Source: Parahaliea mediterranea (GTDB lineage Bacteria > Pseudomonadota > Gammaproteobacteria > Pseudomonadales > Halieaceae). From it: a stretch of DNA of 64,000 nucleotides. The stretch spans positions 1-64,000 of the forward strand of contig NZ_QEWO01000004.1 in NCBI RefSeq assembly GCF_003402235.1, written 5' to 3'. Shown here in pieces: positions 8,420 to 45,094 of the stretch. Each line of letters opens with the position of its first letter. Position 1 is the stretch's first letter. Below the pieces are notes generated by a model that was not told the origin of the DNA, did not search any database, and worked only from the letters and a program-made list of their open reading frames with translations. Made by a program: the position numbers and the translations under genes.

Positions 8420-8435
8420 TTTAATGATGATTAAA
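8420..8435 (-). promoter_or_regulatory. Operator TTTAAT-N4-ATTAAA in the MFS promoter
   Basis: An exact 16-bp palindrome (TTTAAT GATG ATTAAA) lies 94 bp upstream of the MFS start. On the minus strand it fills the 17-bp spacer between TTGACA (8436-8441) and TAGTTT (8413-8418). A repressor bound here would block RNA polymerase. The same motif recurs at 8574, 27097, 32204 and 45079. Confidence 0.7.
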
Positions 8436-8573
8436 TGTCAAGGCGCACTGGCTGCCGCAGCACTCATGGCGCCAGAAAGCGTCGGGCAGCGCTCCCGGCC
8501 TCCGCAACGCCACAACTGATGTGAGCCCTGCGGGCAATGCATACCGCCAAAAAATTAGCGCAAACAAAATTAG

Positions 8574-8589
8574 TTTAATATCTATTAAA
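8574..8589 (+). promoter_or_regulatory. Operator TTTAAT-N4-ATTAAA upstream of the LvaC-like operon
   Basis: Exact copy of the palindrome (TTTAAT ATCT ATTAAA) 76 bp before the acyl-CoA dehydrogenase start at 8665. A TACACT -10-like box follows at 8597-8602, so the left half-site overlaps the -35 position. With the site at 8420 it forms a divergent control region. The rest of the 8327-8664 gap shows no gene. Confidence 0.7.
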
Positions 8590-8664
8590 ATCGATCTACA
8601 CTGCACAGCGGGCGGCACAACAGGCAAGCTGGCAATAACAACGTCACCACCACAGGATCGCGCA

Positions 8665-9873
8665 ATGACCGACACGACACTGGACTGGGTAGAGGTTCGC
8701 TCCCGGGTCAAAACCTTCCTCGAAGAAAAAATCTATCCCGCCGAGCCGGTGCTGCAGGGCAGTGATCGCACCGCAGCCAACCTCGCCATGGCAGACCTGA
8801 TAGAGCAGGCCAAGGCGGCAGGCTTATGGGCCCTGGGGCACCCGAAGGAGATTGGCGGCCAGGGCATGCCGTTTATGGAGTATGTCTACATCAACGAGGT
8901 GGTGGGCCGCTCGGAGTTTGCCCAGAAGGTGTTTGGCACCCTCAGCCACCAGGACTCCATCATGCTCAACGGCTACGCCAGCGAGAAATGGAAGGCCGAG
9001 TACCTGGCGCCCCTGGTGAACGGCGACATCTATCCCAGCTTCGCCATGACCGAACCGGATATCGCCTCCTCCGACCCCACCCAATTGCAGACACGGGCGG
9101 AGCTGGAAGACGGCCACTGGGTAATCAACGGCCGCAAGTGGTTCACCACCGGCGCCGACGAGGCCGCCTACACCACCATCATGTGCCGCACCGAACCCAA
9201 TGCACCACCGCACAAGGCCTTCAGCATGATCGTGGTGCCCACCAACGTGCGCGGCTACAACATCCTGCGCGACACGCCGGTGCTGGGCCTGAACACTGGC
9301 CACTTTGAGGTGGCCTACGACAACATCCGGGTGCCCGAGGATCACCTGCTGGGCCGGCGCGGCGAAGGCTTTCTGATCGCCCAGAAGCGCCTGGGCCCAG
9401 GCCGCATCTTCCACTGTATGCGCTGGCTGGGGCAGGCCCAGCGCGCCTTCGACCTGATGTGCGAACGCCTGCACGAACGCAGCGCCTTCGGCGGTTCCCT
9501 GGCCGACAAGCAGCTGATGCAGAAGCACGTCTTCGACAGCCTGTCGGAAATTTCCGCCTGCCGGCAGCTCACCCTGCAGGCGGCGCAGCGCATCGACAGT
9601 GGCGACCCGGCCCGGGTCGAAATTGGCGTGATCAAGGTGGTGGGCGCGCAGATGCTGCACAACGTTATCGACCGCGCCATCCAGGTGTTTGGCGCCAAGG
9701 GCCTGACCGATGACACCCCTCTGTCGCGCATGTATCGCCACGCCCGCGAGGGCCGCATCTACGACGGGCCCGACGAGGTGCATGTGCAGTCCGTCGCGCG
9801 CCAGATTCTAAAGCGGTACACCGAAGGCGGCCCGGGCTGGGACTTTGGCGAACGCGACAGCGAACTGGTCTGA
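8665..9873 (+). CDS. Acyl-CoA dehydrogenase, ACAD10/11 and LvaC type
   Basis: Of 402 residues, AMTEPDIASSDPTQL near 127-141, the WFTTGADEAAY segment and the C-terminal YDGPDEVHVQSVARQIL are typical of the subfamily related to the dehydrogenase half of human ACAD10/ACAD11 and to LvaC of Pseudomonas levulinate catabolism. In those systems the enzyme acts on a 4-phosphoacyl-CoA made by a partner kinase. Here the kinase (9883) and the small DUF6285 protein (10895) follow directly. The ATG at 8665 is chosen because an AGGA site lies about 8 bases before it; the frame stays open upstream to 8521, but that stretch overlaps the operator region. Likely role: C-C unsaturation/elimination of hydroxyacyl-CoA derivatives (inference from family and neighbours). 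Confidence 0.87.
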   Translation: MTDTTLDWVEVRSRVKTFLEEKIYPAEPVLQGSDRTAANLAMADLIEQAKAAGLWALGHPKEIGGQGMPFMEYVYINEVVGRSEFAQKVFGTLSHQDSIMLNGYASEKWKAEYLAPLVNGDIYPSFAMTEPDIASSDPTQLQTRAELEDGHWVINGRKWFTTGADEAAYTTIMCRTEPNAPPHKAFSMIVVPTNVRGYNILRDTPVLGLNTGHFEVAYDNIRVPEDHLLGRRGEGFLIAQKRLGPGRIFHCMRWLGQAQRAFDLMCERLHERSAFGGSLADKQLMQKHVFDSLSEISACRQLTLQAAQRIDSGDPARVEIGVIKVVGAQMLHNVIDRAIQVFGAKGLTDDTPLSRMYRHAREGRIYDGPDEVHVQSVARQILKRYTEGGPGWDFGERDSELV

Positions 9874-9882
9874 CGCCAAACA

Positions 9883-10875
9883 ATGGACAAAGCAACCGTA
9901 CAGCAGCGACTCACCGGCGCCCTTGCCCGCAGTATCAGCGGCGACTACCACATCGACAGCCTGCGCCTGTTGACCGGTGGCTCCGCCGCCCAGACCTGGC
10001 GCTTCACCCTGCATCAGGGCGACGGCGCGGAGGATTTCATCCTGCGCCTGGCCCACGGCGGCGAGCCCTTCGAAATGGGCATCGACAAGCGCATGGAAGC
10101 CATCGTGCAATCCCACGCGGTAGCCCACGGCGTACTGGCACCGCAGATCATTCTGGTGATTGAGCCCGAGGACCAGTTGGGGGAAGGCTTTGTGATGAAA
10201 CGGGTGGAGGGCGAGACCATCCCCCAGAAGATCCTGCGCCAGGAGCGGTTCGCCGCCGCCCGCGCGGGCATGGCCCGCCAGAGCGGCCAGTTGCTGGCCG
10301 ACATCCACCGGGTGCCGGTGACGGCACTGGACTTTCTGCCGGACCTCAGCGTCGAGCCGCAACTGGCGGCGCTGGAGCGCTTTTACGCCGGCTTTGGCGA
10401 AGCCGTGCCCCTGTTCGACTACACTTTTCGCTGGCTGCAGCAAAACCGGCCCGCTGCCACACGTAAAACCCTGGTGCACGCCGACTTTCGCAACGGCAAC
10501 CTGATGGTGGACGAGAGCGGCATTGTCTCCATTCTCGACTGGGAGCTGGCCCACCTGGGCGACCCGATGGAAGACCTCGGCTGGCTGTGCGTGAATTCCT
10601 GGCGCTTTGGCAACCGCTCACTGCCGGTAGGAGGCTTTGGCACCCGCGAGGATCTCTACCGCGGCTACCGCGAAACCGGCGGTGAACTGGACGAGGATGC
10701 GGTGTTCTTCTGGGAAGTGCTGGGCGTGCTGAAGTGGGGGCTGATCTGCCTCTACCAGACCGGCGTGCACCTGAAGGGCATCGACCGCTCGGTGAACCGC
10801 GCCGCCATCGGCCGCCGCGTTTCCGAGACGGAAATCGACCTGTTGTCCCTGCTCAGCGATGCGCGGGCGCGCTGA
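9883..10875 (+). CDS. APH-family kinase, LvaA-like, for hydroxyacyl-CoA
   Basis: A protein-kinase-like fold of the aminoglycoside phosphotransferase family, 330 residues. Visible parts are a glycine-rich loop LTGGSAAQTW (30-39), the catalytic loop HADFRNGN (199-206) and the metal-binding ILDWE (217-221). In this genomic setting, after an ACAD10/11-type dehydrogenase and before DUF6285, the best match is LvaA, which phosphorylates 4-hydroxyvaleryl-CoA, and the kinase half of ACAD10/11. It starts 9 bp after the dehydrogenase stop in the same operon. An antibiotic-resistance role is unlikely because the context is acyl-CoA metabolism. The true substrate is unknown. Confidence 0.88.
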   Translation: MDKATVQQRLTGALARSISGDYHIDSLRLLTGGSAAQTWRFTLHQGDGAEDFILRLAHGGEPFEMGIDKRMEAIVQSHAVAHGVLAPQIILVIEPEDQLGEGFVMKRVEGETIPQKILRQERFAAARAGMARQSGQLLADIHRVPVTALDFLPDLSVEPQLAALERFYAGFGEAVPLFDYTFRWLQQNRPAATRKTLVHADFRNGNLMVDESGIVSILDWELAHLGDPMEDLGWLCVNSWRFGNRSLPVGGFGTREDLYRGYRETGGELDEDAVFFWEVLGVLKWGLICLYQTGVHLKGIDRSVNRAAIGRRVSETEIDLLSLLSDARAR

Positions 10876-10894: not shown

Positions 10895-11290
10895 ATGCCC
10901 ACTAATCGACCGGATAGCAGCGAACTGATTGCCAGCGTACGGGAAATGCTGGAAACGCAGTTCCTGCCGAATCTCGACGACAAGAACCTGATCTACCAGA
11001 GCCGGGTGGCCATCAATATCCTGAATATCGTCGGCCGCGAACTGGCGAATGGCTCGGCCATGACCGGCGCCGAACAACAGCGGCTGGCGGCGCTGCTGGA
11101 TCAGGCGGGCGATGCCGACTCACTCAATGCCGCGCTGATAGCACGTATCCGGGCCGGCGACTACGACCAGGGCCCGGAGGCGCTGATGGCGCACTTCCTG
11201 GCGACCACGCTGGACAAAATCGCCATCGACAACCCGGGCTACTCGACCTATCGCGAGTATCAGCAGAGCGGGCAATTCAACAATTACTGA
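10895..11290 (+). CDS. DUF6285-like small protein, LvaB-like partner of the kinase
   Basis: A 131-residue soluble, largely helical protein. The N-terminal NRPDSSELIASVREMLE and the LIYQSRVAINILNIVGREL segment are typical of the DUF6285-type proteins found next to APH kinases in acyl-CoA operons. In Pseudomonas putida the small protein LvaB is needed with LvaA for 4-hydroxyacyl-CoA phosphorylation; this gene has the matching size and position. The ATG at 10895 is preferred over an in-frame GTG at 10859, because CTGGAGA lies just upstream and the longer form would overlap the kinase gene. Confidence 0.75.
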   Translation: MPTNRPDSSELIASVREMLETQFLPNLDDKNLIYQSRVAINILNIVGRELANGSAMTGAEQQRLAALLDQAGDADSLNAALIARIRAGDYDQGPEALMAHFLATTLDKIAIDNPGYSTYREYQQSGQFNNY

Positions 11291-11318: not shown

Positions 11319-11882
11319 ATGACATCACATCAACCCGGCTACGACCGCACCGCCCGCCTGTTGCACTGGTCGTCGGCGCTGTGCTTTCTGATCGCCCTGG
11401 GCATCGGGCTGTACTTCGGCACTCTCGACTACCGCAACAACAAAGCCGACTACGCCAAGTTCGGCGAGGTCATCTACTGGCACAAAACCTTCGGCACACT
11501 GGTGTTCGCGCTGGTGTTCTATCGCCTCTATCACCGCTTTCGCCACCCGCCGCCCGCATTGCCTGCCAGTATGCCCGGCTGGATGCGCAGCGCCTCTCAC
11601 CTCAGCCACTGGAGCCTGTACGGGTTGATTGTGGTACTGGGGCTTTCCGGCCTGGTCGGCTCGGACATTGGCAACTATCCGGTGAAACTCTTCGAACTGT
11701 GGTATCTGCCACAGTTCGCCGGGGAGAATCGCCCTCTGGCAGACAGCATACTCAGGGTTCACATCTGGCTGGGCAATACTGCTGCCATACTGGTGGCCAT
11801 CCATATCGGTGCCAGCCTGTACCACCACTGGATCGTCAAAGACGACGTGCTGCGGCGCATGTGGGCAGGCCCAGGGCGCTAA
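11319..11882 (+). CDS. Cytochrome b561 family protein
   Basis: A 187-residue membrane protein with four hydrophobic segments and the paired histidines of bacterial di-heme b561 proteins (ARLLHWSSA near 16, WHKTFGTL near 54, HLSHWSLYGL near 94 and RVHIWLGNTAAILVAIHIGA near 144-163). Such proteins shuttle electrons between quinol and soluble or periplasmic partners. It lies 28 bp after the DUF6285 gene on the same strand and probably shares the transcript. Its link to acyl-CoA oxidation is not obvious; it may dispose of electrons or serve as an independent redox gene. Confidence 0.87.
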   Translation: MTSHQPGYDRTARLLHWSSALCFLIALGIGLYFGTLDYRNNKADYAKFGEVIYWHKTFGTLVFALVFYRLYHRFRHPPPALPASMPGWMRSASHLSHWSLYGLIVVLGLSGLVGSDIGNYPVKLFELWYLPQFAGENRPLADSILRVHIWLGNTAAILVAIHIGASLYHHWIVKDDVLRRMWAGPGR

Positions 11883-11982
11883 CGCATGCCGATTGGATGA
11901 TATAAACCGCTGCAGGCTCCTGGCCCTGCTATCACACAGCCAATTCGAACAGACACTCATTCCTCACACAAAGGACAATGTT

Positions 11983-12762
<780 letters not shown>

Positions 12763-12803
12763 GCGCCAATCACCAGCTCACCTCTATTTCAGGACACCAA
12801 CCT

Positions 12804-13952
12804 ATGGGCCCACTGCAGGGATTCAGAATTATCGAGCTGGCGGGTATTGGCCCCGGCCCCTTCTGCGGCATGCTGCTGTCGGACCTGGGCGCGGAAGTCA
12901 TCAGCATCGAGCGCCCCACCCGCCATACCGGCAAACGCGATGACGCCGTGTGCATGCGCAACCGTCGCTCGCTGTGCGTGGACCTGAAAAAGCCGGAGGG
13001 CGTGGAACTAGTGCTGGATTTGTGCAGCGGCGCCGATGCCCTGTACGAGGGCTTTCGACCGGGAGTGGCAGAACGACTGGGCCTTGGGCCAGAGCCCTGC
13101 ATGGCGCGCAACCCGGGCCTGGTCTACGGCCGTATCACCGGCTGGGGGCAGAGCGGCCCCCTGGCCCAGAGTGCTGGCCACGACATCAACTACATTGCCC
13201 TGTCCGGCGCCCTGCACGCCATTGGCCGGGCCGGTGAGCCGCCCCTGCCGCCCCTCAACCTGGCGGGGGACTACGGCGGTGGCGGCCTGTTCCTGGCGCT
13301 GGGCATACTGAGCGCGCTATTGGAAAAAAGCCGCTCCGGCCAGGGTCAGGTGGTGGACGCGTCCATGGTGGAAGGCTCCGCCGCGCTGATGGCCGTGTTC
13401 TACGGTCTGCACGGCATGGGCCGGCACAGTACCGAGCGCGGCAGCAACCTGCTCGATACCGGCGCGCCCTTCTACGAAGTCTACGAAACGCGTACCGAAG
13501 CCACCCAGGAGCCCCAGTACATTGCCATCGGCCCACTGGAACCGCAGTTCTACGAATTGCTCATCAAGGCCATCGGCGCCGACGAAACGCAGTTCTTCCC
13601 CCAGCACGACACCCAGGCCTGGGGCGACCGCAAAGCCCGGCTGGCGGCCATCTTTCGCCAGCGTAGTCGCGACCAATGGTGCCAGCTGCTGGAGGGCACC
13701 GATGCCTGCTTCGCCCCGGTACTGTCTCTCACCGAGGCCCCCGACCATCCACACAATATCGCCCGGGGCAGCTTTATTACCGTCGACGGCATTGTGCAGC
13801 CGGCGCCGGCACCAAAGTTCAGCCGCAGCCAGCCGGCCACGCCGCGCGCCTCAGCGGCGCCGGGCAGCGATACCGATGCCCTGCTGGCGGAGCTGGGCTA
13901 CTCGGCGGAAAAATCCGCCGCGTTAAGGGCAGCCGGGGCCATCCCGGGCTGA
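12804..13952 (+). CDS. Alpha-methylacyl-CoA racemase (CaiB/BaiF family III)
   Basis: Interconverts 2R- and 2S-methylacyl-CoA so that branched chains (pristanoyl-, sterol side-chain or bile-acid-type CoA) can enter beta-oxidation. The 382 residues show IELAGIGPGPFCGMLLSDLG at the start, His126 and Asp156 in GHDINYIAL and GDYGGGG, and Glu246 in PLEPQFY. These correspond to the catalytic His, Asp and Glu of mycobacterial MCR. CaiB-type transferases lack this combination. AGGACA lies upstream of the ATG at 12804. It ends the plus-strand operon; the next gene is convergent and 12 bp away. Confidence 0.88.
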   Translation: MGPLQGFRIIELAGIGPGPFCGMLLSDLGAEVISIERPTRHTGKRDDAVCMRNRRSLCVDLKKPEGVELVLDLCSGADALYEGFRPGVAERLGLGPEPCMARNPGLVYGRITGWGQSGPLAQSAGHDINYIALSGALHAIGRAGEPPLPPLNLAGDYGGGGLFLALGILSALLEKSRSGQGQVVDASMVEGSAALMAVFYGLHGMGRHSTERGSNLLDTGAPFYEVYETRTEATQEPQYIAIGPLEPQFYELLIKAIGADETQFFPQHDTQAWGDRKARLAAIFRQRSRDQWCQLLEGTDACFAPVLSLTEAPDHPHNIARGSFITVDGIVQPAPAPKFSRSQPATPRASAAPGSDTDALLAELGYSAEKSAALRAAGAIPG

Positions 13953-21469: not shown

Positions 21470-21485
21470 TCTAATCTATACTAAA
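21470..21485 (+). promoter_or_regulatory. Degenerate copy of the TTTAAT-N4-ATTAAA operator
   Basis: TCTAAT CTAT ACTAAA keeps the 6-4-6 layout of the exact operators with one change in each half. It lies 104 bp before the DUF3604 gene, in a 274-bp gap that is otherwise AT-richer and gene-free. It may be a weak site of the same regulator. Confidence 0.35.
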
Positions 21486-21588: not shown

Positions 21589-23361
21589 ATGAAACCCGCA
21601 ACACTCGGCCACTATGGCCTGCTGCTTGCCTGCCTGGCCGGCAGCACCGCCAGCCAGGCAGCCAACACCGGCCACTGCCCCGGTTACCAGAGCGGCCAGC
21701 GCAACCTGTACTGGGGCGACCTGCACGTCCACACCGCCTATTCCATGGATGCCTACGCCTTTGGCACCACCGCCAACCCGGCCGATGCCTTTGCCTTCGC
21801 CCGCGGAGCGCCGATCACCCTGGCCGATGGCAAAACCCGCCAGCAACTGCGCCGGCCGCTGGACTTTGCCGCGGTCACTGATCACGCAGAGACCTTTGAC
21901 GTGATGCAACTGTGCACCGCCGGCCCCGAACAGCTGGACAACCCCTACTGCCGGGGCCTGCGCGCTGGCGCGGGTACCGATCTCAGCCAGTCCCGCAACA
22001 TTTTTGTTAACTACCTGCTGCCGGTCATCGCCGGCGGCGAGCCCGCCCTGCCCGCCCTGTGTGAGGAGGAGGGTATAGACTGCGACAGCGCCCGCAGCGC
22101 CCTGTGGCAACAGAGCCAGCGTTTTGCCAATGACGCAGACAGCCCCTGCGAGTTCACCGCCTTTGTCGCCAACGAATGGTCCGCCACCCCCGGCAGCGCG
22201 CACTGGCACCGTAACCTGATTTACAGAAGCGCCGCCACCACCCCCACGGCCATCGATTATGTACGCTACCCAACACCGCTAAAGCTATGGCAGGCGCTGG
22301 ATGAACAATGTCGCGCGCAGGACGGCTGCGACGTGGTGGCCATTCCCCACAACACCAACTTCGCCGAAGGTGGCGGCTTTGATGTTGAAGCCGAACAGCC
22401 CGACACCCTGCGCCTGCGCGCACGCTTTGAACGCCTGGTGGAAATTCACCAGAGCAAGGGCAACAGCGAGTGCATTGCAGAAAACTGGGACAACGCCGAC
22501 AGCGACTGTGGCTTTGAAAAAGCCTTTCACTCTGCCGCCAGCAAAGAGCGCGCCGCCACGGACCCTGCCTACGTAAAGACCCTGAATCGCGCCTACGTAC
22601 GGAACATTCTCAGCCGTGGCCTGCAGGCCTATATCGCCAGTGACAAGGCGGCACTCAACCCCTTGCAGCTGGGCTTTGTCGGCTCCACCGATGCCCACGC
22701 CGCCACCGCCGGTGCCACTGAGGAAGACGCCTACACCGGAGACGCCTGGGGCGGTGGTGGCTCCGACCCGCGCCGCATCCAGGGCCGGCCGGATTACAAC
22801 CCGGGTGGACTGGTTGGCATCTGGGCCGCCGAGAATACCCGCGCCAGCCTGTTTGACGCACTGAAGCGCCGCGAAACCTACGCCACCAGTGGCACCCGCA
22901 TTGCCCTGCGCTTTAGCGCCGACCGGGCGGATGCACCAGACGCCTGCAGCGCCGATTACGACTACAGCAACGCAACCGCCATGGGCGCAACACTTGGCAG
23001 CAGCGCAACAGACACGCCAGTGGCGGCGCCGCGCCTTACGGTGCTGGCCAATATGGATCGCACGCCCCTGCAGCGGGTGGAGATTATCAAGGGCACCCTG
23101 GATGGGAACGGCGACATCGTGCAGCAGGTCATCACCCTTGCCGACCTCAAGCCAGGCAGCCCAAGCACCTGCAACAGCTGGACCGACCCCGATTTCGACC
23201 CCGCCCGGCCCGCCTACTGGTATGCCCGGGTTAAAGAGCTGCCGACCGAGCGCTGGTCAAAGCGACTCTGCGAATCACTCGACAACTGCAATGACGTGCC
23301 CGGAGCCGACCGGCTGATCCAGGAAACCGCCTGGAGCTCACCGATCTGGTACCTGCCCTGA
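21589..23361 (+). CDS. Exported DUF3604 protein, PHP-like metal site
   Basis: A 590-residue protein with a cleavable signal peptide (cleavage after about residue 24, ASQA) and a DUF3604 domain. The metal-binding style motifs GDLHVHTAYSMD (His46, His48), VTDHAETFD and AIPHNTNFAEGGGF resemble PHP-type phosphoesterases/amidohydrolases. Eight or more cysteines (for example CPGY, CDSARS, CNSW) suggest disulfides and a periplasmic or outer location. The family has no firmly known substrate but recurs beside TonB receptors and catabolic genes. CAGGAGGAG lies before the ATG. It heads a plus-strand run with an alpha/beta hydrolase and an acyl-CoA synthetase. Confidence 0.85.
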   Translation: MKPATLGHYGLLLACLAGSTASQAANTGHCPGYQSGQRNLYWGDLHVHTAYSMDAYAFGTTANPADAFAFARGAPITLADGKTRQQLRRPLDFAAVTDHAETFDVMQLCTAGPEQLDNPYCRGLRAGAGTDLSQSRNIFVNYLLPVIAGGEPALPALCEEEGIDCDSARSALWQQSQRFANDADSPCEFTAFVANEWSATPGSAHWHRNLIYRSAATTPTAIDYVRYPTPLKLWQALDEQCRAQDGCDVVAIPHNTNFAEGGGFDVEAEQPDTLRLRARFERLVEIHQSKGNSECIAENWDNADSDCGFEKAFHSAASKERAATDPAYVKTLNRAYVRNILSRGLQAYIASDKAALNPLQLGFVGSTDAHAATAGATEEDAYTGDAWGGGGSDPRRIQGRPDYNPGGLVGIWAAENTRASLFDALKRRETYATSGTRIALRFSADRADAPDACSADYDYSNATAMGATLGSSATDTPVAAPRLTVLANMDRTPLQRVEIIKGTLDGNGDIVQQVITLADLKPGSPSTCNSWTDPDFDPARPAYWYARVKELPTERWSKRLCESLDNCNDVPGADRLIQETAWSSPIWYLP

Positions 23362-23391
23362 CGCGCCACACCATCCAAGAAGGAGCCCACC

Positions 23392-24567
23392 ATGTCCGAC
23401 ACCCGCAAGCGCTATACCTATACCCGCACCCCCCACCTGGTGGTTTACCAGGACAAATCCAACTTCAAGGATACCTACGCCGGCGAGATAGATGTGGTGG
23501 CCATTCAGTGCCACCTGCTGCGCCCGGATGACAAACCCTCCGACACCCTGGTGGTTTGGTCCCACCCGATTGGTGGCGGCTTTTACCTGCCGATGATGGC
23601 GGCCCTGGCCAAGGCCGGCGTGCACACCATGTACTGCGACACCCGCTACCGCGGCGTGGATACCGCCCTGATCATGGAGAAAGTGATCTGCGACCTTGGC
23701 GCCGCCATTCGCGATGCCAAGGAACGCCTGGGCTACAAGAAGATCATCCTGGGCGGCTGGAGCGGCGGCGGCTCCATGAGCCTGTTCTACCAGGCCGAGG
23801 CGGAGAACCCGACAGTGACCGCAACGCCTGCCGGCGACTCGCCGGACCTGACCAAGCGCAACCTCATTCCCGCCGATGGCATGATGCTGGTGGCCGCCCA
23901 CCTGGCACGTCACCGCACCCTCACGGAGTGGCTGGACCCGTCGGTGACCGACGAGAACGACCCCGAGAACCGCGACCCGGAACTGGACATCTACAACCCC
24001 GACAACCCCAACCAGCCGCCCTACTCCGCGGAATTTCTGGCGCGTTTTCGCGCCGCACAGATCGAGCGCAACCGGCGCATTACGCGCTGGGTGAAGGAGA
24101 AGCTGGCCGAATACAAGGCCAACGGCCAGCCCAACCGTGAATACGGCTTTGTGGTACACCGCACCATGGCAGAACCCAAGTGGCTGGACCCGACCATTGA
24201 CCCCAACGACCGCAAGCCCAACTGGTGCTTCCTGGGCGAACCGGAGGTGGTGAACGACAGTCCGGTGGGCCTGGCGCGCTTCTGCTCGCTGCGCTCTTGG
24301 CTGTCCCAGTGGAGTTGGGACGACGCCCGCGCCGACGGCCTTAGCTGCGCAGCCCGCATCTCGGTGCCGGCACTGGTCATTGGCAACACCGCCGACGACG
24401 GCATTACCCCCGAGCACACCCAGGGCCTGTACGAGGCCGTGCCTCACAGCAACAAAGAACTGAAATGGATCGAGGGCGCCAACCACTACTACTTCGGCCA
24501 GCCGGAAAAAGCCGCCGAAGCCGCCCACACCTGCGCCGACTGGCTGCAGGCCCAGGGCCTGGCGTAA
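23392..24567 (+). CDS. Alpha/beta hydrolase
   Basis: A 391-residue cytoplasmic alpha/beta hydrolase with the nucleophile elbow GWSGGG (Ser124), an acid in GNTADDGITP near 345 and the histidine in EGANHYYFG near 364. The oxyanion strand reads VVWSHPIGGGF. A large cap between about 145 and 300 is polar and Pro/Asn rich. It could open an ester, lactone or ring-cleavage product before CoA activation by the synthetase that follows 24 bp downstream. AAGGAG precedes the ATG. The specific substrate is not recognisable. Confidence 0.83.
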   Translation: MSDTRKRYTYTRTPHLVVYQDKSNFKDTYAGEIDVVAIQCHLLRPDDKPSDTLVVWSHPIGGGFYLPMMAALAKAGVHTMYCDTRYRGVDTALIMEKVICDLGAAIRDAKERLGYKKIILGGWSGGGSMSLFYQAEAENPTVTATPAGDSPDLTKRNLIPADGMMLVAAHLARHRTLTEWLDPSVTDENDPENRDPELDIYNPDNPNQPPYSAEFLARFRAAQIERNRRITRWVKEKLAEYKANGQPNREYGFVVHRTMAEPKWLDPTIDPNDRKPNWCFLGEPEVVNDSPVGLARFCSLRSWLSQWSWDDARADGLSCAARISVPALVIGNTADDGITPEHTQGLYEAVPHSNKELKWIEGANHYYFGQPEKAAEAAHTCADWLQAQGLA

Positions 24568-29880: not shown

Positions 29881-32103
29881 TCAGAAGTTGATGATCAGCT
29901 CCACCCCCAGCTCCCGCGGGGGCTGATAGAACTGGGTGATCGGGTTGGCACCGGTCACCACAGCGCCGGAGATGACTTCCTCGTCGGTCAGGTTTTTGCC
30001 ATACACCGTCAGTTTGTAGCGCTCATCAGTGTCCGTGTAAGAAATGTTGGCGTTTACCAGCGCCACCTCGTCGCGGTAGAAGGCATCGTCCAACGCACGA
30101 CCCCAGGTATTGTAACGGTCGGTATAGCGCACATCGCCGTGCAGGCTGAAGATGCCAATGCCGGTCACCAGGTCGTAATCCAGCAACAGACTGGCACTGA
30201 GCTCCGGTGCGTTGGGCAGTGGCAGGTCAGTCTGGTCTTCGGCGATCAGCCACTGACCGGGAGAAAACTCCAACTCAAAGCCGCCGCAGTTGGAGGGCAT
30301 GTAGGCGGAAGCGCCATCCGTGTCATCGCAGAAATCATTGTACTCCGCATCCAGGTAGCCCACGTTAAAGCCCACCTGCAGGTTCTCCACCGGCAGTACC
30401 AGCAGCTCCAGCTCAACGCCGGCAATTTCCGCCTCGGCGACATTGGTGGTGATGCTTTCTGCCCGTACCGAACCGGGCCGTTGCACGCCCTGCTGCAGAT
30501 CCTCGTATTCGTTGAGGAAGATGGCCCCATTCACACGCAGGCGCCGGTCCCACCAGTCGCTTTTGATACCCAGCTCATAGGCGGTTACCGTCTCTTCGTC
30601 GTAGGGGCCCACCAGTTCCGGCAGGGTGGCGCGGGAGTTGTAGCCACCGCCCTTGTAGCCCTGCGACACCGAGCCATACAGCAGTATGTCGTCCGACAGC
30701 TGGTATTCCAGGGCCACCTTGGGCGAGAAGTTGGTCCAGCTGTCGTCTTTCTCGGCAATGAACGATGACGTCACCACACCGTTGGTCAGCGAATCGCTTT
30801 CGAGCGTGTAGTTCTTCTCATCACGCGTGTAGCGGCCGCCGACGGTCAGCGTCCAGTCGTCCAGAAAGGTGTAGTCCGCCTGGGCGAATACTGCCGAGGA
30901 TTCGGAATCCTGCGAGTTGGTGCCGAAGCTGCCGATCACAGCCGGGGCGGTGAACACGCCAACATCGTTCACCTGCTGCCACTTATCCTGGTTGTAATAC
31001 AGCCCCACCACGTAGTGGAAGTCGTTGCCGATGGTGCTGTCCCAGCGCAGTTCAGCGCTCTGGGTGTCACCCTGGAAGTCACGCTGCACGTTCAGGTTCT
31101 GGTTGGGAATAACGCCCGGATTGTCGGTGCCGTCAAAGTCACCCCGGTTGTAATAGTCGAGGTTCCTGTTGCCGAGCACTGCGGTTATTTTGCCGGCGTC
31201 CAAGTGCCAATTGGCCTCAACGGTGGTGCCGGTGGTGGTGGTCTGGGTTTCGGGGTCGAAATTCAGCGCCGCCTTGTACACATCGCCCTGGATGGCCTCC
31301 ACCGCCGTGCTGTGGCCACCCGGGCCAAGCACTTCGTCGTCGGTGTAATCGGCAATCACTGTCACATCAAAGGTGTCGCTGGGCTCGAACTTCAGCGCAC
31401 CGCGCAGCGACTTAACCTCCTGTGCCATCAGTGTGGTTCCGGTGGTGATGTTCTCCATGTAGCCGTCGTAGTCGCGGTAGGCGCCAGCCAGTTTGGCGGA
31501 GAACATATCGTTGGCAAAGCGGTTGCTGTTGACCTGGAATTTGTAGTGCTGCAGGCCGTTCTCGCCGGCGGTGGCGCTCACCTTGCCGCCAAATTCACCA
31601 GTGGGGCGGGCGGTGGTGACGTTAATGGTACCCGCCAGGTTGTTTTTACCAAACAGGGTGCCCTGGGGGCCGCGGATCACCTCAATGCGGTCAATGTCGA
31701 ACATATCCAGCATGGTGCCTGCAACAAAGGGCACATAGACCCCGTCGATAATCATGCTGGTTTTCGGGTCGCTGTTGGGGTCCGGATCGGAGTGGTTCAT
31801 GCCGCGAATGGAGAACATGGGCACGTTTGGCACCAGGCCCTGGGTCTGCAGGATGATGTTGGGCGCAATGCCGTTGATGGTGGTGATGTCGGTACCGCCA
31901 ACGCGCTCCACCATGTCGCCGGTAAAGGCCGCCATGGAGATGGGCACATCCTGGATGCTCTCCTCCCGCTTCTGGGCGGTAACAACAACTTCTTCGAGTG
32001 TGGGCGCCATCTGGGCCTGCGACTGGCTTGCTGTCAGAGTCAGCAGGGCTGTGGCCAGCAGTGTCAGCGAGTGGCGAGGGCAGAGAAGGACAGGGTAATC
32101 CAT
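29881..32103 (-). CDS. TonB-dependent receptor 1
   Basis: A 740-residue outer-membrane uptake receptor with a signal peptide (cleavage near SQSQAQ), a TonB-box-like EEVVVTAQKREES near 36-48, a plug (IRGMNHSDPDPNSD, VEVIRGPQGTLFGKNNLAG-type segment near 140) and a 22-strand barrel ending in a C-terminal Phe (GVELIINF). The FGKNNLAGTINVTTARP signature puts it with receptors of the sphingomonad/marine catabolic type rather than siderophore receptors. The promoter region at 32104-32286 carries an exact TTTAAT-N4-ATTAAA operator; a terminator follows the gene. Likely imports the bulky substrate degraded by this cluster (inference). Confidence 0.92.
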   Translation of the reverse strand: MDYPVLLCPRHSLTLLATALLTLTASQSQAQMAPTLEEVVVTAQKREESIQDVPISMAAFTGDMVERVGGTDITTINGIAPNIILQTQGLVPNVPMFSIRGMNHSDPDPNSDPKTSMIIDGVYVPFVAGTMLDMFDIDRIEVIRGPQGTLFGKNNLAGTINVTTARPTGEFGGKVSATAGENGLQHYKFQVNSNRFANDMFSAKLAGAYRDYDGYMENITTGTTLMAQEVKSLRGALKFEPSDTFDVTVIADYTDDEVLGPGGHSTAVEAIQGDVYKAALNFDPETQTTTTGTTVEANWHLDAGKITAVLGNRNLDYYNRGDFDGTDNPGVIPNQNLNVQRDFQGDTQSAELRWDSTIGNDFHYVVGLYYNQDKWQQVNDVGVFTAPAVIGSFGTNSQDSESSAVFAQADYTFLDDWTLTVGGRYTRDEKNYTLESDSLTNGVVTSSFIAEKDDSWTNFSPKVALEYQLSDDILLYGSVSQGYKGGGYNSRATLPELVGPYDEETVTAYELGIKSDWWDRRLRVNGAIFLNEYEDLQQGVQRPGSVRAESITTNVAEAEIAGVELELLVLPVENLQVGFNVGYLDAEYNDFCDDTDGASAYMPSNCGGFELEFSPGQWLIAEDQTDLPLPNAPELSASLLLDYDLVTGIGIFSLHGDVRYTDRYNTWGRALDDAFYRDEVALVNANISYTDTDERYKLTVYGKNLTDEEVISGAVVTGANPITQFYQPPRELGVELIINF

Positions 32104-32203: not shown

Positions 32204-32219
32204 TTTAATCCACATTAAA
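32204..32219 (-). promoter_or_regulatory. Operator TTTAAT-N4-ATTAAA in the receptor 1 promoter
   Basis: Exact copy (TTTAAT CCAC ATTAAA), 101 bp before the receptor start. On the minus strand it fills the spacer between TTGACA (32220-32225) and ACATTT (32197-32202). An adjacent inverted pair GATTAAA/TTTAATC (32192-32210) overlaps it, so two dimers might bind. The right flank ATTAAATGTCAAG is identical to that of the site at 8420. Confidence 0.72.
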
Positions 32220-32537: not shown

Positions 32538-32553
32538 TTTAAGATATATTAAA
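32538..32553 (+). promoter_or_regulatory. Near-exact operator before TonB receptor 2
   Basis: TTTAAG ATAT ATTAAA differs from the exact operators at one base and lies 157 bp before the ATG of receptor 2. The stretch 32438-32537 between it and the SnoaL remnant holds short imperfect repeats of CACTGCGCTG but no gene. Confidence 0.5.
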
Positions 32554-32709: not shown

Positions 32710-35133
32710 ATGCCCTACCCAACCCGCCCCGCCGCCCTTGGCGGGGGCCTCTGCGCCCTTGCCGCCGCCGTGCTGACCACCTCGTTACTACCCGCCCGGG
32801 CCGCGGCCCAGGACAGCGCCGGCAACGCCGAAGACCATCGCGTGATCGAGGAAGTGATCGTCAGCGTGCGCTACCGCGAGGAGAGCCTGCAAACGGTGCC
32901 AAGTGCGGTAACGGCCTTCGACACCGGCATGCTGGAGGACATTGTGGCACTGGACTTCCAGGACTTGAGCCGCCCGTCGCCGAACGTGAATATCCAGCAG
33001 GTGAACCAGTTTCCCAACGCCGCCGCTGTGCACATCCGCGGCATCGGCGACCAGCGCATTGAGTCCACCGAAGAGCCGCGTGCGGGTATCTCCATCGACG
33101 GCCTGTTCTTTACCCGGCCGGGTTCCAGCAACATCGACTTCTTTGACCTGGCCTCGGTGCAGATACTGCGCGGCCCCACCGGGGTGAATTTTGGCAAGAA
33201 CAGCCTCGCTGGCGGCATGGCGGTGGAAACCATCCAGCCCAGCGGTGAACTCGGTGGCAAGGTCGATGTGAACATCGGCAACTACGGCCGCGAGGAATAC
33301 CGGATGGCGGTGGACTCGCCAAAAATCGCCGATTGGGCCTTCCGCCTGTCCTACCTGTACAAGCAGTACGACGGCCACTTCAAAAACCGCTTTGACGGCA
33401 CGCCACGCGGTGCCTTCGGTGTACCCGAGGACTTCACCCTGCCCATCGCCAAGGAACTGGGCGCCGAAGACGTCAGCTCCGGGCGCCTGCAGGGTTTGTG
33501 GACACCCAGCGACAATGTCGACCTGCGCCTGATCTACAACTGGGTGCGCGACAAGAGCGACCCGACCCCGGGCGATACCGCCTCCGACGACGGCTCAGAC
33601 CCGCGTTTTCCCGCCCAGTTGGCCTGCATACTGCAGGAGGGTTGCCCGGAACCCGATGACGGCCCCTACCGCCTTGGCCGCGACTACTACTCGCGCTCCG
33701 ACATTGACCAGGACGCCTTCACCGGCATCCTCAACTGGGACTTCGGCGGTGTGGCGATGACGGCCATCGCCGGCTATATCGAAACCGATGACCTGTTCCT
33801 GAACGACTTTGACCAGACCGAGTTTTTCTTCTTCCCGACCTCCCGCGACCAGACCCACGACCAGACCAGCTTCGAGCTGCGCTTTACCAACAGCGACGAC
33901 AGCGGCAGGCTGGACTGGGTCGTGGGCGCCTTCTATATGGAGCAGGAACATGAACTGACCCAGAACTTCCCGACCCTTGGCTTTACCGCCGGTGATACCT
34001 TTTTCGCCACCGCCGACTACACCACCCAGAAAGCCGAGAGCCAGGCGCTGTTCGGCCAGGTGATCTACGCCATTAACGACCGTTTGAACCTGACCGCTGG
34101 CCTGCGCTACACCGATGAGCAAAAGGACTTCTACCGCGACCCAGCCATTTCCACACCCGCCATCACCTACGACCCCAACACTCACTTCAGCTACAGCGAC
34201 GCCCGGGCACTGGCGCGGCAGGATCTGTCGGACGACATACTCAGCGACCTGGACACCGACCACACCGACTACAAACTGGCGCTGGACTACCAGCTGGGTG
34301 ACAACGCCATGGTGTACGGGCAGGTGGCTACCGGCTTCAAGGCCGGCGAATTTGGCGCCCGCGCCAACTCACCGGAAACCGCCCTGCCCACCGATGACGA
34401 AGAGGCGATTTCCTACGAAATCGGCCTGAAGTCGGAACTGTGGGACAACCGGCTGCGCCTGAACCTGGCGGCCTTCTGGGCCAGTTACGAGAACCTGCAA
34501 TTCGGGGTTTTTGTGCCCAGCGCCAACGTCACCGGCCAGGAGACCCTGAACCAGAACGTGGGCGAGGCCACCACCAAGGGCATTGAACTGGACCTCAGCG
34601 CCTCGCTGACCGATCGCCTGACCGTGAACCTCAACGCGGGCTACCTGGATGCCAGCTACGACGAGTTCTGCGCCGACCTCAACGGCGCCAGTGCCTATCC
34701 CACCCCGCCCACATCCAGCTGCGGCAGCGTAACCGCCCTGACCGACGGCACCTATCTAGTAGAAGAGGACCAGTCGGACCTGGAACTGTCCCGGGCCCCG
34801 AGCTACAACTACCACGTCAGCGGCGAGTACGACCTGCCGCTGCCCGATGGCTGGGGCGGCCTGGTGGCGCTGTTGTCCTACACCTACAGCGACGAGTACT
34901 TCTCTGACTCCACCATCAATCACCCCAAGGGCAAGACCGGTGGCTTTGGCACCTGGGACGGCAGCCTGGCCTGGAGCAACAGCAGCCGCGCCCTGCGGGT
35001 GGCCCTGTGGGGCAAAAACCTGACCGATGAGGAGGAGGTATCCGGGCTGACCCCCACCGCCAACTTCTTCAACCAGCGCTTCTGGTATCCGCCGCGCACC
35101 TACGGCGTGAACCTCAGCTACACCTTCGAGTAG
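32710..35133 (+). CDS. TonB-dependent receptor 2
   Basis: An 807-residue outer-membrane receptor. The signal peptide ends near ARAAAQ; the plug has IEEVIVSVRYREESLQTVP near 46-64, HIRGIGDQR and LRGPTGVNFGKNSLAG; the barrel ends YGVNLSYTFE with an aromatic residue near the C terminus. Loops contain cysteine pairs (ACILQEGC). It is divergent from receptor 1 across a 606-bp region with operators and a SnoaL remnant. ACAGGAGAG precedes the ATG. It belongs to the same broad family as receptors 1 and 3 but is clearly different, so it may take a related but distinct molecule. Confidence 0.92.
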   Translation: MPYPTRPAALGGGLCALAAAVLTTSLLPARAAAQDSAGNAEDHRVIEEVIVSVRYREESLQTVPSAVTAFDTGMLEDIVALDFQDLSRPSPNVNIQQVNQFPNAAAVHIRGIGDQRIESTEEPRAGISIDGLFFTRPGSSNIDFFDLASVQILRGPTGVNFGKNSLAGGMAVETIQPSGELGGKVDVNIGNYGREEYRMAVDSPKIADWAFRLSYLYKQYDGHFKNRFDGTPRGAFGVPEDFTLPIAKELGAEDVSSGRLQGLWTPSDNVDLRLIYNWVRDKSDPTPGDTASDDGSDPRFPAQLACILQEGCPEPDDGPYRLGRDYYSRSDIDQDAFTGILNWDFGGVAMTAIAGYIETDDLFLNDFDQTEFFFFPTSRDQTHDQTSFELRFTNSDDSGRLDWVVGAFYMEQEHELTQNFPTLGFTAGDTFFATADYTTQKAESQALFGQVIYAINDRLNLTAGLRYTDEQKDFYRDPAISTPAITYDPNTHFSYSDARALARQDLSDDILSDLDTDHTDYKLALDYQLGDNAMVYGQVATGFKAGEFGARANSPETALPTDDEEAISYEIGLKSELWDNRLRLNLAAFWASYENLQFGVFVPSANVTGQETLNQNVGEATTKGIELDLSASLTDRLTVNLNAGYLDASYDEFCADLNGASAYPTPPTSSCGSVTALTDGTYLVEEDQSDLELSRAPSYNYHVSGEYDLPLPDGWGGLVALLSYTYSDEYFSDSTINHPKGKTGGFGTWDGSLAWSNSSRALRVALWGKNLTDEEEVSGLTPTANFFNQRFWYPPRTYGVNLSYTFE

Positions 35134-42872: not shown

Positions 42873-43787
42873 CTATCGGTTCAGAAAGTTGAGCGGCAGC
42901 CCCGCCACCGGCCAGGGCATGGACACCACTCGCCCGCTCGCCGACAGCGTGATGTAAGCCGTTTTCAGCCCTGGCCCACCGAAGCAGATATTGGTGGTGG
43001 CAATATCCCCGGTAGGGAAGTGATCAAGCACCCGACCGTCCGCCGCAAACCAGGTGATGCCGCCGTTGAGGATGGTTGCCACGCAGATATTGCCCTCGCC
43101 ATCCACGGCCAGTGAATCGTAATGCTGCAGCCCCTGCGGGCTCGCCAGGCAATGGCCATTGTGGAAGCCCGCCGGCGGCGCCAGCTCACCCGGTGCGACG
43201 ATATCGAACGCCCACAGGCGCGCGGCCGTGGTATCCGCCACGTAGAGAGTTTGCTCATCCGGCGACAGGCCGATGCCGTTGGGCGTATCCACCGGAAACG
43301 CCGCCTCAACAATCTCACTGCCATCGGGCAGTGCGTAGTAAATGGCGCCCCGGTCCTGCTGGCGGCCATAGCGCTGGCCGAGGTCGGTAAACCAGAAGCC
43401 GCCCTGGCGGTCGAACACAATATCGTTGGGGCCACTCAAGGGGTGGCCATTGCAGTGAGTATAGAGCGTGGTGACCGCACCGCTTTGCAGATCCACCCGC
43501 TGGATACTGCCGCCGCGATAATTTGCCGCGCGCCCCACCGGGAAGGGCGTACCGTCCACGTCTATCCAGTCGAAGCCGCCATTGTTGCAGACATACACCG
43601 CGCCATCGGGGCCAATGGCCGCGCCGTTCGGGCCACCGCCGAGTTCCGCCACCACTTCGACCACACCGCCCGTGGTGATGCGCGACAAGGTGCCGCGCTG
43701 GATCTCTACCAGCAGCAGCGACCCGTCCGCCAGGGCAATCGGCCCTTCCGGAAACTGCAGCCCGCTGGCGATTTCCGTAAATGCCAT
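42873..43787 (-). CDS. SMP-30/gluconolactonase family lactonase
   Basis: 304-residue six-bladed beta-propeller hydrolase. The metal-site motifs are FPEGPI near the start (Glu), GPNGAAIGPDGAVYVCNNGG, SGPNDIVFDRQGGFWFTD (Asn-Asp) and PNGIGLSPDEQTLYVADTTA (Asn, Asp). Members hydrolyse sugar or hydroxyacid lactones. Its stop lies 3 bp from the MarR stop (convergent), and the gene follows the CoA-transferase with a one-base overlap. A lactonase producing a hydroxy acid would fit the hydroxyacyl-CoA kinase module at 8665-11290 (inference). Confidence 0.86.
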   Translation of the reverse strand: MAFTEIASGLQFPEGPIALADGSLLLVEIQRGTLSRITTGGVVEVVAELGGGPNGAAIGPDGAVYVCNNGGFDWIDVDGTPFPVGRAANYRGGSIQRVDLQSGAVTTLYTHCNGHPLSGPNDIVFDRQGGFWFTDLGQRYGRQQDRGAIYYALPDGSEIVEAAFPVDTPNGIGLSPDEQTLYVADTTAARLWAFDIVAPGELAPPAGFHNGHCLASPQGLQHYDSLAVDGEGNICVATILNGGITWFAADGRVLDHFPTGDIATTNICFGGPGLKTAYITLSASGRVVSMPWPVAGLPLNFLNR

Positions 43788-44992
43788 CAGACCACTCCCT
43801 CGGTGCGCAGGGCGTCGATCTCCGCCTCGTCCAGCCCCAGCAACTCGCCAAGCACTTCCTGGTTGTGGCTGCCAACGCCCTGCCCGGGCCAGTCGGTGCG
43901 CCCCGGCGTGTCCGCCAGCTTGGGCATGATGGCGGGGATGTGCAGCGGCTTGCCGTCGATCTCCACCTGTTCGAACATGCCGCGGGCGTTAAAGTGCGGG
44001 TCGCGCATCTGGTCTTCCACGTTGTACACCAGGCCCACTGGCACCCGCTGCGCCTCCAGAACCTCCACCACCTCGGCCGCCGTGCGCCCGGCGCACCAGT
44101 CGGCCAGGGCCTTGTCGATCACCTCCACATGGCGCACGCGGCCTTCGTTGTGGGCCATCTCCGGATTCTCCGCCATCTCGGGATGCCCGGCGGCCACCAT
44201 CAGGCGCTTGAAGATGGAGTCGCCGTTGCCGCCGATAATCACAAACTTGCCGTCACCGCAGGTGTAGGTGTTGGTGGGCACAATGCCGGTGAGCGTTGTG
44301 CCGGATGCCTCGCGAATCACGCCGGCACCCGAGTATTCGGGCACCACGCCTTCCATCAGGTTGAACATGGATTCGTACAGGGCCACATCCACCACCTGGC
44401 CCTCGCCCGACTGACGCTGGCGCTGCAGCAGGGCCAGGCAGATACCCAGGGCGGCGTGAATGGCGGCGATGGTATCGCCGGTGCTGAGGTTGGGCCGCAC
44501 CGGCGGCTCCCCCGGGAAGCCGTTGACATAACGAAAGCCACTGACCCCTTCCGTCACCGAGGCGTAGCCGGGCTTGGCGGCATAGGGGCCGGTCTGGCCA
44601 TAGCCGGAGATACGGGCATAAACCACCCCCGGGTTGACCTGCTTGATGTCCTCCGGGCCCATGCCCCACTCCTCCACCACCCCCGGGCGGAAATTCTCCA
44701 CCACCACGTCGGCACTGTGCATCAGCTTGCGCGCCAGTGCCCGGCCCTTCTCGCTTTTCAGGTCCAGCGTCACGCTCTTTTTGTTGCGCCCCAGGCTGCG
44801 ATACCAATGGGACGTACCGTTTTCCACAATGCGCCAGCCCCGAATCGGATCGCCCTTGCCCGGGGGCTCGATCTTGATCACCTCTGCCCCGAAGTAGCCG
44901 AGAATAGTGCTGGTGAAGGGCCCGGCCAGCAGCTGGCCGAGTTCGATAACGCGAATGCCATCCAGCGGGCGCTGGGACGGGGTGCTGGACAT
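43787..44992 (-). CDS. CaiB/BaiF family CoA-transferase
   Basis: 401-residue family III CoA-transferase. The N-terminal IRVIELGQLLAGPFTSTILG, GKGDPIRGWR, SVTLDLKSEKGR and the catalytic Asp in GQVVDVALYESMFNLMEG follow the formyl/succinyl-CoA transferase pattern and not the racemase pattern at 12804. It probably loads CoA onto a carboxylic acid from succinyl- or acetyl-CoA. CGGAGGAA precedes the ATG. The lactonase gene follows with a one-base overlap. The 184-bp upstream gap contains an exact TTTAAT-N4-ATTAAA operator. Confidence 0.88.
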   Translation of the reverse strand: MSSTPSQRPLDGIRVIELGQLLAGPFTSTILGYFGAEVIKIEPPGKGDPIRGWRIVENGTSHWYRSLGRNKKSVTLDLKSEKGRALARKLMHSADVVVENFRPGVVEEWGMGPEDIKQVNPGVVYARISGYGQTGPYAAKPGYASVTEGVSGFRYVNGFPGEPPVRPNLSTGDTIAAIHAALGICLALLQRQRQSGEGQVVDVALYESMFNLMEGVVPEYSGAGVIREASGTTLTGIVPTNTYTCGDGKFVIIGGNGDSIFKRLMVAAGHPEMAENPEMAHNEGRVRHVEVIDKALADWCAGRTAAEVVEVLEAQRVPVGLVYNVEDQMRDPHFNARGMFEQVEIDGKPLHIPAIMPKLADTPGRTDWPGQGVGSHNQEVLGELLGLDEAEIDALRTEGVV

Positions 44993-45078
44993 ACTGGTTC
45001 CTCCGAACGGGCGGCCTCAACCGAACAACGCCGCGCCAGCCCCGCAGGGGCCGGCAGACTTAGTTATTGCAAAATTAT

Positions 45079-45094
45079 TTTAATATTGATTAAA
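45079..45094 (-). promoter_or_regulatory. Operator TTTAAT-N4-ATTAAA before the CoA-transferase
   Basis: Exact copy (TTTAAT ATTG ATTAAA), 87 bp before the CoA-transferase start. On the minus strand it follows a TTGCGT -35-like box (45094-45099) and lies where the promoter spacer should be, as at 8420 and 32204. Confidence 0.7.

What the first reader, a model, noticed from the sequence alone, without database searches (positions are those of the whole stretch)
8420..45094. Undescribed catabolic regulon marked by TTTAAT-N4-ATTAAA
The exact palindrome TTTAAT-N4-ATTAAA is found at 8420, 8574, 27097, 32204 and 45079, and near copies at 32538 (one change) and 21470 (two changes). Each is within about 160 bp upstream of a catabolic operon: MFS-dehydrogenase-lyase, dehydrogenase-kinase-DUF6285, synthetase-VOC, two TonB receptors, DUF3604-hydrolase-synthetase, and CoA-transferase-lactonase. 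The spacers differ (GATG, ATCT, GCAC, CCAC, ATTG), so only the arms are conserved, as for a true dimer site. The single TetR gene in the window (26313) is the candidate regulator.
Basis: partly seen in the sequence, partly recalled or inferred. Interest (0 to 1): 0.85.

Follow-up and report, generated by a model that had tools for sequence, protein, structure and literature searches.

The report
TetR-controlled catabolic island and its operator
A short DNA palindrome in front of seven promoters of a 40-kb degradation island is very probably the landing site of one TetR-type switch protein encoded in that island, whose relatives in other bacteria appear to use the same site for genes of propionate and isobutyrate metabolism.

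Summary
Five exact TTTAAT-N4-ATTAAA sites lie at the stated places. They are the only exact copies in the 5.09-Mb genome, against none for the reversed control. The seven proposed sites are intergenic and recur in Parahaliea maris. The regulator guess survives a test that could have failed it: the site lies in 22 of 22 loci encoding a TetR at least 48% identical and in 0 of 47 at 37% or less. In 20 of 20 Woeseiaceae-type loci it sits between tetR and divergent icmF. A second copy precedes prpB in 12 of 13 genomes with prpB. A third genome of the genus keeps a 96%-identical target gene but lacks this TetR and the site. Corrections: GntR and MarR genes also lie in the island; the 2-mismatch site at 21470 counts only through conservation. 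Best reading: an autoregulated, acyl-CoA-responsive repressor; binding, repression and ligand are untested. It is a new member of a known kind: mycobacterial BkaR has an operator of the same geometry. A second palindrome, TGTCAAT-N3-ATTGACA, marks two island promoter regions without this site.

The parts
8420..8435 (.). Operator copy (exact) for the leftward MFS-ACAD-HMGL operon; fills the spacer of TTGACA-N17-TAGTTT
   Evidence: counterpart in P. maris
8574..8589 (.). Operator copy (exact) for the rightward ACAD-kinase-DUF6285 operon
21470..21485 (.). Operator copy (2 mismatches, TCTAAT-N4-ACTAAA) for DUF3604-hydrolase-synthetase-TetR, perhaps also for the divergent SDR gene at 20547; the same two changes occur in P. 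maris
   Evidence: not above background by count
27097..27112 (.). Operator copy (exact) for synthetase-VOC
32204..32219 (.). Operator copy (exact) for leftward TonB receptor; fills the spacer of TTGACA-N16-TACATT
32538..32553 (.). Operator copy (1 mismatch) for rightward TonB receptor; exact in P. maris
45079..45094 (.). Operator copy (exact) for leftward CoA-transferase-lactonase operon
26313..26927 (+). TetR regulator (TetR_N + TetR_C_24), last gene of the DUF3604-hydrolase-synthetase-TetR run
   Evidence: Pfam; co-occurrence with the motif; model; fold
4838..5773 (-). HMG-CoA lyase-like lyase
5777..6931 (-). Acyl-CoA dehydrogenase; long-chain ACAD is among its best solved matches; 56-62% identical to an ACAD downstream of icmF in 8 of the 20 Woeseiaceae-type loci
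6971..8326 (-). MFS transporter
8665..9873 (+). Acyl-CoA dehydrogenase closest to ACAD11 (LvaC-like)
9883..10875 (+). APH-type kinase (LvaA / ACAD11 kinase-domain like)
10946..11290 (+). DUF6285 protein
11319..13952 (+). Rest of the operon: cytochrome b561, SDR, CoA-transferase III
21589..26145 (+). DUF3604 protein, alpha/beta hydrolase, acyl-CoA synthetase
27169..29326 (+). Acyl-CoA synthetase and VOC protein
29881..32103 (-). TonB-dependent receptor
32710..35133 (+). TonB-dependent receptor
42873..44992 (-). SMP-30-type lactonase and CoA-transferase III

Best explanation
TTTAAT-N4-ATTAAA is the operator of the TetR protein encoded at 26313-26927. A dimer binds each palindrome, which overlaps the core promoter at several sites, and blocks transcription. 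When an acyl-CoA intermediate of the pathway accumulates, it binds the TetR C-terminal domain, the protein leaves the DNA, and the uptake (TonB, MFS) and degradation operons are switched on together. The repressor also controls its own operon through the site at 21470. Supported by sequence: the sites, their conservation, their intergenic place and their co-occurrence with this TetR. Inferred from family and fold: dimer binding, repression, acyl-CoA ligand. The island probably degrades a 4-hydroxy- or lactone-type carboxylic acid, because its second operon resembles the ACAD11/LvaA-LvaC kinase-dehydrogenase pair; the substrate is unknown.
For: Genome-wide exclusivity of the exact site. Seven of seven sites have a counterpart in P. 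maris: arms 82 of 84 bases identical by hand pairing (read) or 75 of 84 in global alignments, spacers 14 of 28, flanks 931 of 1713. TetR subfamily and motif: 22 of 22 loci at >=48% identity (two partial genes) against 0 of 47 at <=37%. Woeseiaceae-type loci: site between tetR and divergent icmF in 20 of 20; prpB 12 of 13. Over 107 genomes of the family of a Woeseia MAG, 68 of 79 with this TetR have an exact site; density in TetR-positive genomes 0.418 per Mb against 0.015 for the control. A third Parahaliea keeps the 96%-identical ACAD but has no TetR ortholog and no site at <=3 mismatches. P. maris has a further exact site in front of the CoA-transferase gene that an insertion cut off from its operon. 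TTGACA abuts the operator in 4 of 15 Parahaliea sites, expected 0.003 from shuffled flanks. Top Foldseek matches: AibR-isovaleryl-CoA, KstR2, PfmR; FadR lower.
Against: No binding or expression data. 11 of 79 TetR-positive genomes of the Woeseia family have no exact site, and 11 of 28 TetR-negative ones have one (7 of the 11 under 2.2 Mb; TetR-negative genomes as a whole sit at control density, 0.432 against 0.482 per Mb). The genomes are related, so Fisher's p overstates independence. In the window's own family, 15 of the other 138 genomes hold one or two exact copies without an ortholog of at least 40% among the matches listed for them, G033 and G129 (no site) reaching 40%; 19 of 140 hold the reversed control. 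One of 13 prpB loci has no site, and P. maris's own 38% and 35% PrpB-like loci have none. In Hyphomonas the site is 7.3 kb from tetR. The site in front of the TetR operon (21470) has two mismatches, a class at background by count. The best-scoring promoter does not overlap the operator in 3 of 15 Parahaliea and 6 of 7 prpB cases. Fold similarity does not prove the ligand.
Confidence: 0.85

Rival explanations
1. The palindrome is the operator of another regulator of the island, the MarR (42366-42869) or GntR (16707-17390) protein.
For: Both genes lie in the island, are conserved in P. maris, and MarR proteins also bind AT-rich palindromes (recalled).
Against: Neither has a relative in L041-L059 at E 1e-10, where the motif sits beside tetR in most loci. 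A different palindrome, TGTCAAT-N3-ATTGACA, lies in front of the genes of the MarR block. No TTTAAT-type site at up to 2 mismatches lies between 8590 and 21469, which holds the GntR block.
Confidence: 0.04
2. The same TetR binds these sites but as an activator or as a global fatty-acid regulator of the FadR/PsrA type rather than as a local repressor.
For: The fold is close to fatty-acid regulators; the sites are AT-rich and close to promoters.
Against: No exact site outside the island in this genome; operators fill the -35/-10 spacer at two promoters in each of the two genomes, which suits repression.
Confidence: 0.07
3. The motif is a promoter element or AT-rich spacer without a dedicated protein, enriched by base composition or repeat spread.
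For: It lies at promoters and is AT-rich; in small genomes of the Woeseia family it occurs at about the control rate.
Against: In this genome shuffles and the reversed control give none or few; flanks and spacers differ while arms stay; presence tracks a TetR subfamily.
Confidence: 0.02

Closest known systems
BkaR of Mycobacterium (PMC3920632, abstract start and passages seen)
   Same: Autoregulated TetR repressor; 16-bp operator core GTTA(N)T(N4)A(N)TAAC with the same 6-4-6 geometry, whose half-site can read GTTAAT; [quoted passage not shown]
   Different: First base of each half-site is G, not T; the regulon (accD1-bkdC) is unlike this island; direct protein comparison not made
AibR (PDB 5k7h, 5k7z; Myxococcus is recalled)
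   Same: Top Foldseek match; TetR fold, crystal with isovaleryl-CoA
   Different: 27% identity; the paper is not held, so its operator was not compared
KstR2, PfmR and Bacillus FadR
   Same: TetR fold; the entry titles tie KstR2 to cholesterol and FadR to fatty-acid metabolism
   Different: 19-30% identity; operators not compared
LiuQ and FadP (TetR regulators of betaproteobacteria; PMC5343134, passages seen)
   Same: TetR family; regulate branched-chain amino acid and fatty acid degradation
   Different: Reported there as unique to betaproteobacteria among the classes studied; motifs not shown in the passages seen
lva operon (LvaA, LvaC) and ACAD10/ACAD11 (PMC12440821, passages seen)
   Same: APH-type kinase plus ACAD11-like dehydrogenase side by side
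   Different: Different companions (cytochrome b561, CoA-transferase III); substrate unknown; DUF6285 = LvaB is recalled, not tested

Membership tests
TetR-family one-component regulators | N-terminal TetR HTH domain with an all-helical C-terminal ligand domain | tested here: met
   Pfam TetR_N and TetR_C_24 above cut-off; all-helical model, mean pLDDT 86.8
TetR-family one-component regulators | Operator in or next to the regulator's own promoter | tested here: met
   20 of 20 Woeseiaceae-type loci; in the window the site at 21470 heads the gene run ending in tetR, with two mismatches but conserved; not met in Hyphomonas at <=1 mismatch
TetR-family one-component regulators | Binds a palindrome as a dimer and represses | not testable with these tools
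   Palindrome present; no binding data
Acyl-CoA-responsive TetR group (AibR, KstR2, FadR) | Fold similarity in the whole chain | tested here: met
   Foldseek ranks 1-3 AibR, KstR2, PfmR, TM-score 0.69-0.76 by query length
Acyl-CoA-responsive TetR group (AibR, KstR2, FadR) | Acyl-CoA ligand | not testable with these tools
   Inferred from fold and regulon only
BkaR | 16-bp core GTTA(N)T(N4)A(N)TAAC | tested here: not met
   Geometry and the other bases of each half-site agree; outer base is T in the exact sites against G in the paper
BkaR | Controls the accD1-bkdC branched-chain keto-acid operon | tested here: inconclusive
   No carboxyltransferase or keto-acid dehydrogenase domain in the Pfam results for the island; no direct search for these genes was made
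LvaA-LvaC / ACAD11-type 4-hydroxyacyl-CoA module | APH-type kinase next to an ACAD most like ACAD10/11 | tested here: met
   ACAD11 is the best solved match of the dehydrogenase, 3e-71, and one of three solved matches of the kinase at E <= 1e-8
LvaA-LvaC / ACAD11-type 4-hydroxyacyl-CoA module | Turns 4-hydroxyacyl-CoA into 4-phosphoacyl-CoA and enoyl-CoA | not testable with these tools
   Needs enzyme assay

The most novel reading that the evidence does not exclude
One TetR-operator pair has been re-used across classes for different regulons that share a signal. In Woeseiaceae it controls icmF and prpBCD (isobutyryl- and propionyl-CoA use). In Parahaliea and Hyphomonas it travelled with a transferable catabolic island whose TonB-fed pathway handles a branched 4-hydroxy or lactone acid, in Parahaliea through a kinase-ACAD step. 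The common ligand would be a short or branched acyl-CoA. A second regulon with palindrome TGTCAAT-N3-ATTGACA, probably under the island's MarR, controls further island operons and a wax ester synthase gene outside the island.
Probability: 0.35. Interest if true: 0.6.

Novelty: new member of a known kind. Interest (0 to 1): 0.48.

Why it matters
It gives a regulator, its operator and its targets for a marine catabolic island that I found no description of and, at the same time, a predicted regulator for propionate and isobutyryl-CoA metabolism in Woeseiaceae, for which the one literature search made on that point (Woeseia with methylcitrate) found nothing in the held library. The operator makes regulon membership readable from sequence, and the three Parahaliea genomes form a natural experiment in gain and loss of a regulator together with its sites.

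Tried and rejected
Rejected: MarR or GntR as owner of the 16-mer (no relatives in L041-L059 at E 1e-10). Rejected: the 40595/40606 near-matches as TetR sites; they are part of TGTCAAT-TTA-ATTGACA. Rejected as evidence: two-mismatch hits elsewhere in the genome, 39 against 49 in the control. A scan for BkaR-type cores (xTTAxT-N4-AxTAAx) near the 47 distant TetR genes found them within 1.5 kb in 3 (L061, L063, L098), so a shared wider code is only hinted at. MarR relatives in viral contigs: none. Literature: nine searches. I saw listings only, and often a part: 20 of 145 papers, 5 of 5 (28), 20 of 21,693 (29), 8 of 9 (41), 15 of 18 (55), 10 of 1,189 (59); none for DUF6285 (40), Woeseia with methylcitrate (56) or the 16-mer (60). 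No listed title or abstract start names this regulon. Passages were read in PMC10481361, PMC12440821, PMC5343134 and PMC3920632. The substrate was not identified; PDB matches gave only enzyme classes.

Weak points in my counts: the 107-genome table was copied by hand into; the promoter scan used hexamer weights set from general knowledge and had no random control apart from the TTGACA count. The global alignment misplaced site 32538 because of extra DNA in P. maris, so the 82 of 84 figure comes from hand pairing. The tetR-icmF count was first read from best pieces only and rechecked with all pieces.
Full report
Observation. A scan of the window finds TTTAAT-N4-ATTAAA exactly at 8420, 8574, 27097, 32204 and 45079, with one mismatch at 32538, and with two at 21470, 40595 and 40606; shuffles give 0.15 on average. 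In the whole genome (5,089,065 bases, 29 contigs) the five are the only exact copies, and the reversed control has none. At up to one mismatch there are 9 against 4, and at up to two 39 against 49. The exact class is therefore far above chance and confined to this island, while the two-mismatch class is background by count. Of 140 genomes of the same family, only this one and G135 hold more than two exact copies (5 and 6); 15 others hold one or two, which is no more than the reversed control, present in 19.

Setting. The island (about 4838-46568) lies between lnt and leuS-lptE-holA. In four of six other genomes of the same family that I looked at, lnt sits directly before leuS. The fifth, G134, carries a remnant of the island there. 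In the sixth, G048, lnt was not found in about 19 kb beside leuS. Pfam gives: MFS, acyl-CoA dehydrogenase and HMG-CoA lyase-like lyase left of 8420; acyl-CoA dehydrogenase, APH kinase, DUF6285, cytochrome b561, SDR and CoA-transferase III right of 8574; DUF3604, hydrolase, synthetase and TetR right of 21470 (and an SDR to its left); synthetase and VOC right of 27097; TonB receptors on either side of 32204/32538; CoA-transferase III and SMP-30 lactonase left of 45079. Of my 57 gene calls, 56 were scanned (all but the 70-aa ORF at 51803) and hold one TetR. GntR (16707) and MarR (42366) genes are present.

The genus is Parahaliea by inference: genome G135 of the same genus has contig C1 of 107,276 bases, the length of the P. 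maris HSLHS9 record that one search returned with the 89%-identical TetR.

Conservation in P. maris. Its island is collinear, turned round, and has six exact sites, one with one mismatch and two with two. All seven window sites have a counterpart. By hand pairing the arms agree in 82 of 84 bases; in automatic global alignments 75 of 84, spacers 14 of 28, flanks 931 of 1713. The imperfect site at 21470 keeps the same two changes in both species. An extra exact site stands before the CoA-transferase gene, where an insertion has separated it from the rest of its operon.

Which protein binds? TetR relatives were sought in the collection of species genomes with six peptide patterns; 69 loci came back. 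All 22 with at least 48% identity (two of them partial genes) hold the palindrome at up to one mismatch, 20 exactly; none of the 47 at 37% or less does. In 20 of 20 Woeseiaceae-type loci the site lies between tetR and a divergent gene. That gene, scanned in L050, encodes a B12-binding/MeaB/mutase fusion matching fused isobutyryl-CoA mutase in the PDB. Whole-genome scans of the 21 non-Parahaliea genomes show one to three exact sites in 19. The second sites that I read, in seven genomes, precede a prpB gene; the genes after it, scanned in L140, are citrate synthase-like and PrpD-like. PrpB at 65% identity or more was found in 13 of these 21 genomes; a site at up to two mismatches precedes it in 12 (7 exact, 4 with one, 1 with two) and not in G157. 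P. maris's own PrpB-like genes, 38% and 35% identical, have no such site. Over 107 genomes of the family of a Woeseia MAG, 68 of 79 with the TetR have an exact site, and 11 of 28 without it have one; restricted to genomes of at least 2.2 Mb this is 68 of 79 against 4 of 14, Fisher p 2.6e-5, without correction for kinship. In TetR-positive genomes the site is 28 times denser than the reversed control; in TetR-negative ones it is at the control's density.

Natural loss. Genome G134, same genus, keeps between lnt and leuS the ACAD (96% identical), kinase (89%), DUF6285, SDR, CoA-transferase and GSDH genes. It has no TetR ortholog (best E 1e-28 against 4e-122 in P. maris), no relative of the hydrolase at E 1e-40, no exact site in the genome and none at up to three mismatches around the remnant.

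Mechanism. At 8420 and 32204, and their P. maris counterparts, the operator fills the space between TTGACA and a -10-like hexamer; TTGACA abuts the operator in 4 of 15 Parahaliea sites against 0.003 expected. That suits a repressor which shuts RNA polymerase out. In 3 of 15 Parahaliea sites and 6 of 7 prpB sites the best-scoring promoter does not overlap the operator. The model of the TetR (pLDDT 86.8) is closest to AibR with isovaleryl-CoA, KstR2 and PfmR, with FadR further down. An acyl-CoA inducer is therefore likely but not shown. The tie to icmF and prpBCD in Woeseiaceae points to a short or branched acyl-CoA. In 8 of the 20 Woeseiaceae-type loci an ACAD 56-62% identical to that of the MFS operon lies downstream of icmF, a possible shared target.

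Pathway. The ACAD right of 8574 has ACAD11 as best solved match (3e-71; a putative ACAD follows at 8e-67 and the next at 1e-47), and its kinase neighbour matches the ACAD11 chain too. Mammalian ACAD10/11 and bacterial LvaA/LvaC act on 4-hydroxyacyl-CoA through a phosphorylated intermediate (PMC12440821, passages). With a lactonase, CoA ligases and an HMG-CoA lyase-like enzyme, a 4-hydroxy or lactone acid is a fair guess for the substrate, no more.

Known relatives. BkaR of mycobacteria binds a 16-bp core GTTA(N)T(N4)A(N)TAAC in its own promoter (PMC3920632, passages): same geometry, one base different per half-site. Four spellings of the 16-mer of this report were found in no paper of the held library. 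LiuQ and FadP are TetR regulators of related pathways in betaproteobacteria (PMC5343134, passages).

A second regulon. TGTCAAT-N3-ATTGACA occurs exactly three times in this genome (35350 and 40600 in the window, one on contig 22), three times in P. maris, and not in G134; the reversed control at up to one mismatch gives 1, 0 and 0. The window copies lie before the ACAD at 35438 and between the synthetase at 38943-40481 and the gene at 40689, places without a TetR site. The third copy in each genome lies before a wax ester synthase/DGAT gene. A two-mismatch copy lies 70 bp before the homologous 40689-type gene in Hyphomonas. The MarR at 42366 is 86% identical in P. maris and at most 52% in other genomes of the family. 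It is the likely owner by inference; of the loci of four weaker MarR relatives (L175 at 52%, L176-L178), only one (L177, 39%) shows a two-mismatch copy.

Verdict. It is a new regulator-operator pair of a known kind, with an interesting change of regulon between lineages.

Noticed in passing
window 35350-35366 and 40600-40616 (partial copy 35397): A second palindrome, TGTCAAT-N3-ATTGACA, exact three times genome-wide and three times in P. maris, absent from G134; it heads island genes without a TetR site and a wax ester synthase gene on another contig. Likely MarR operator, by inference.
   Followed up: partly
G000:C24:227206-227739 and many genomes of the family: Open frames of about 440 aa hold two tandem matches to the TetR in many genomes, as if two TetR units were fused in one protein.
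   Followed up: no
window 13965-20530: A block with a GntR gene, an enolase-like protein, D-2-hydroxyacid dehydrogenase, RraA-like protein, APH kinase and a transporter; the enolase, kinase and RraA genes have relatives in the same order in the Hyphomonas locus L041.
   Followed up: partly
window 23392-24567; L041:2810-3970: The hydrolase is 80% identical between Parahaliea (gammaproteobacterium) and Hyphomonas (alphaproteobacterium), suggesting transfer of the cluster between classes.
   Followed up: partly
window about 32300-32410: Between the two TonB promoters lies what looks like the start of an ORF that appears longer in P. maris (seen only in the DNA alignment); probably a gene remnant.
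   Followed up: no
G134:C20 about 76470-82275 (locus L165, about 12470-18275): Remnant of the island between lnt and leuS in a third Parahaliea genome, without TetR and without operator.
   Followed up: yes
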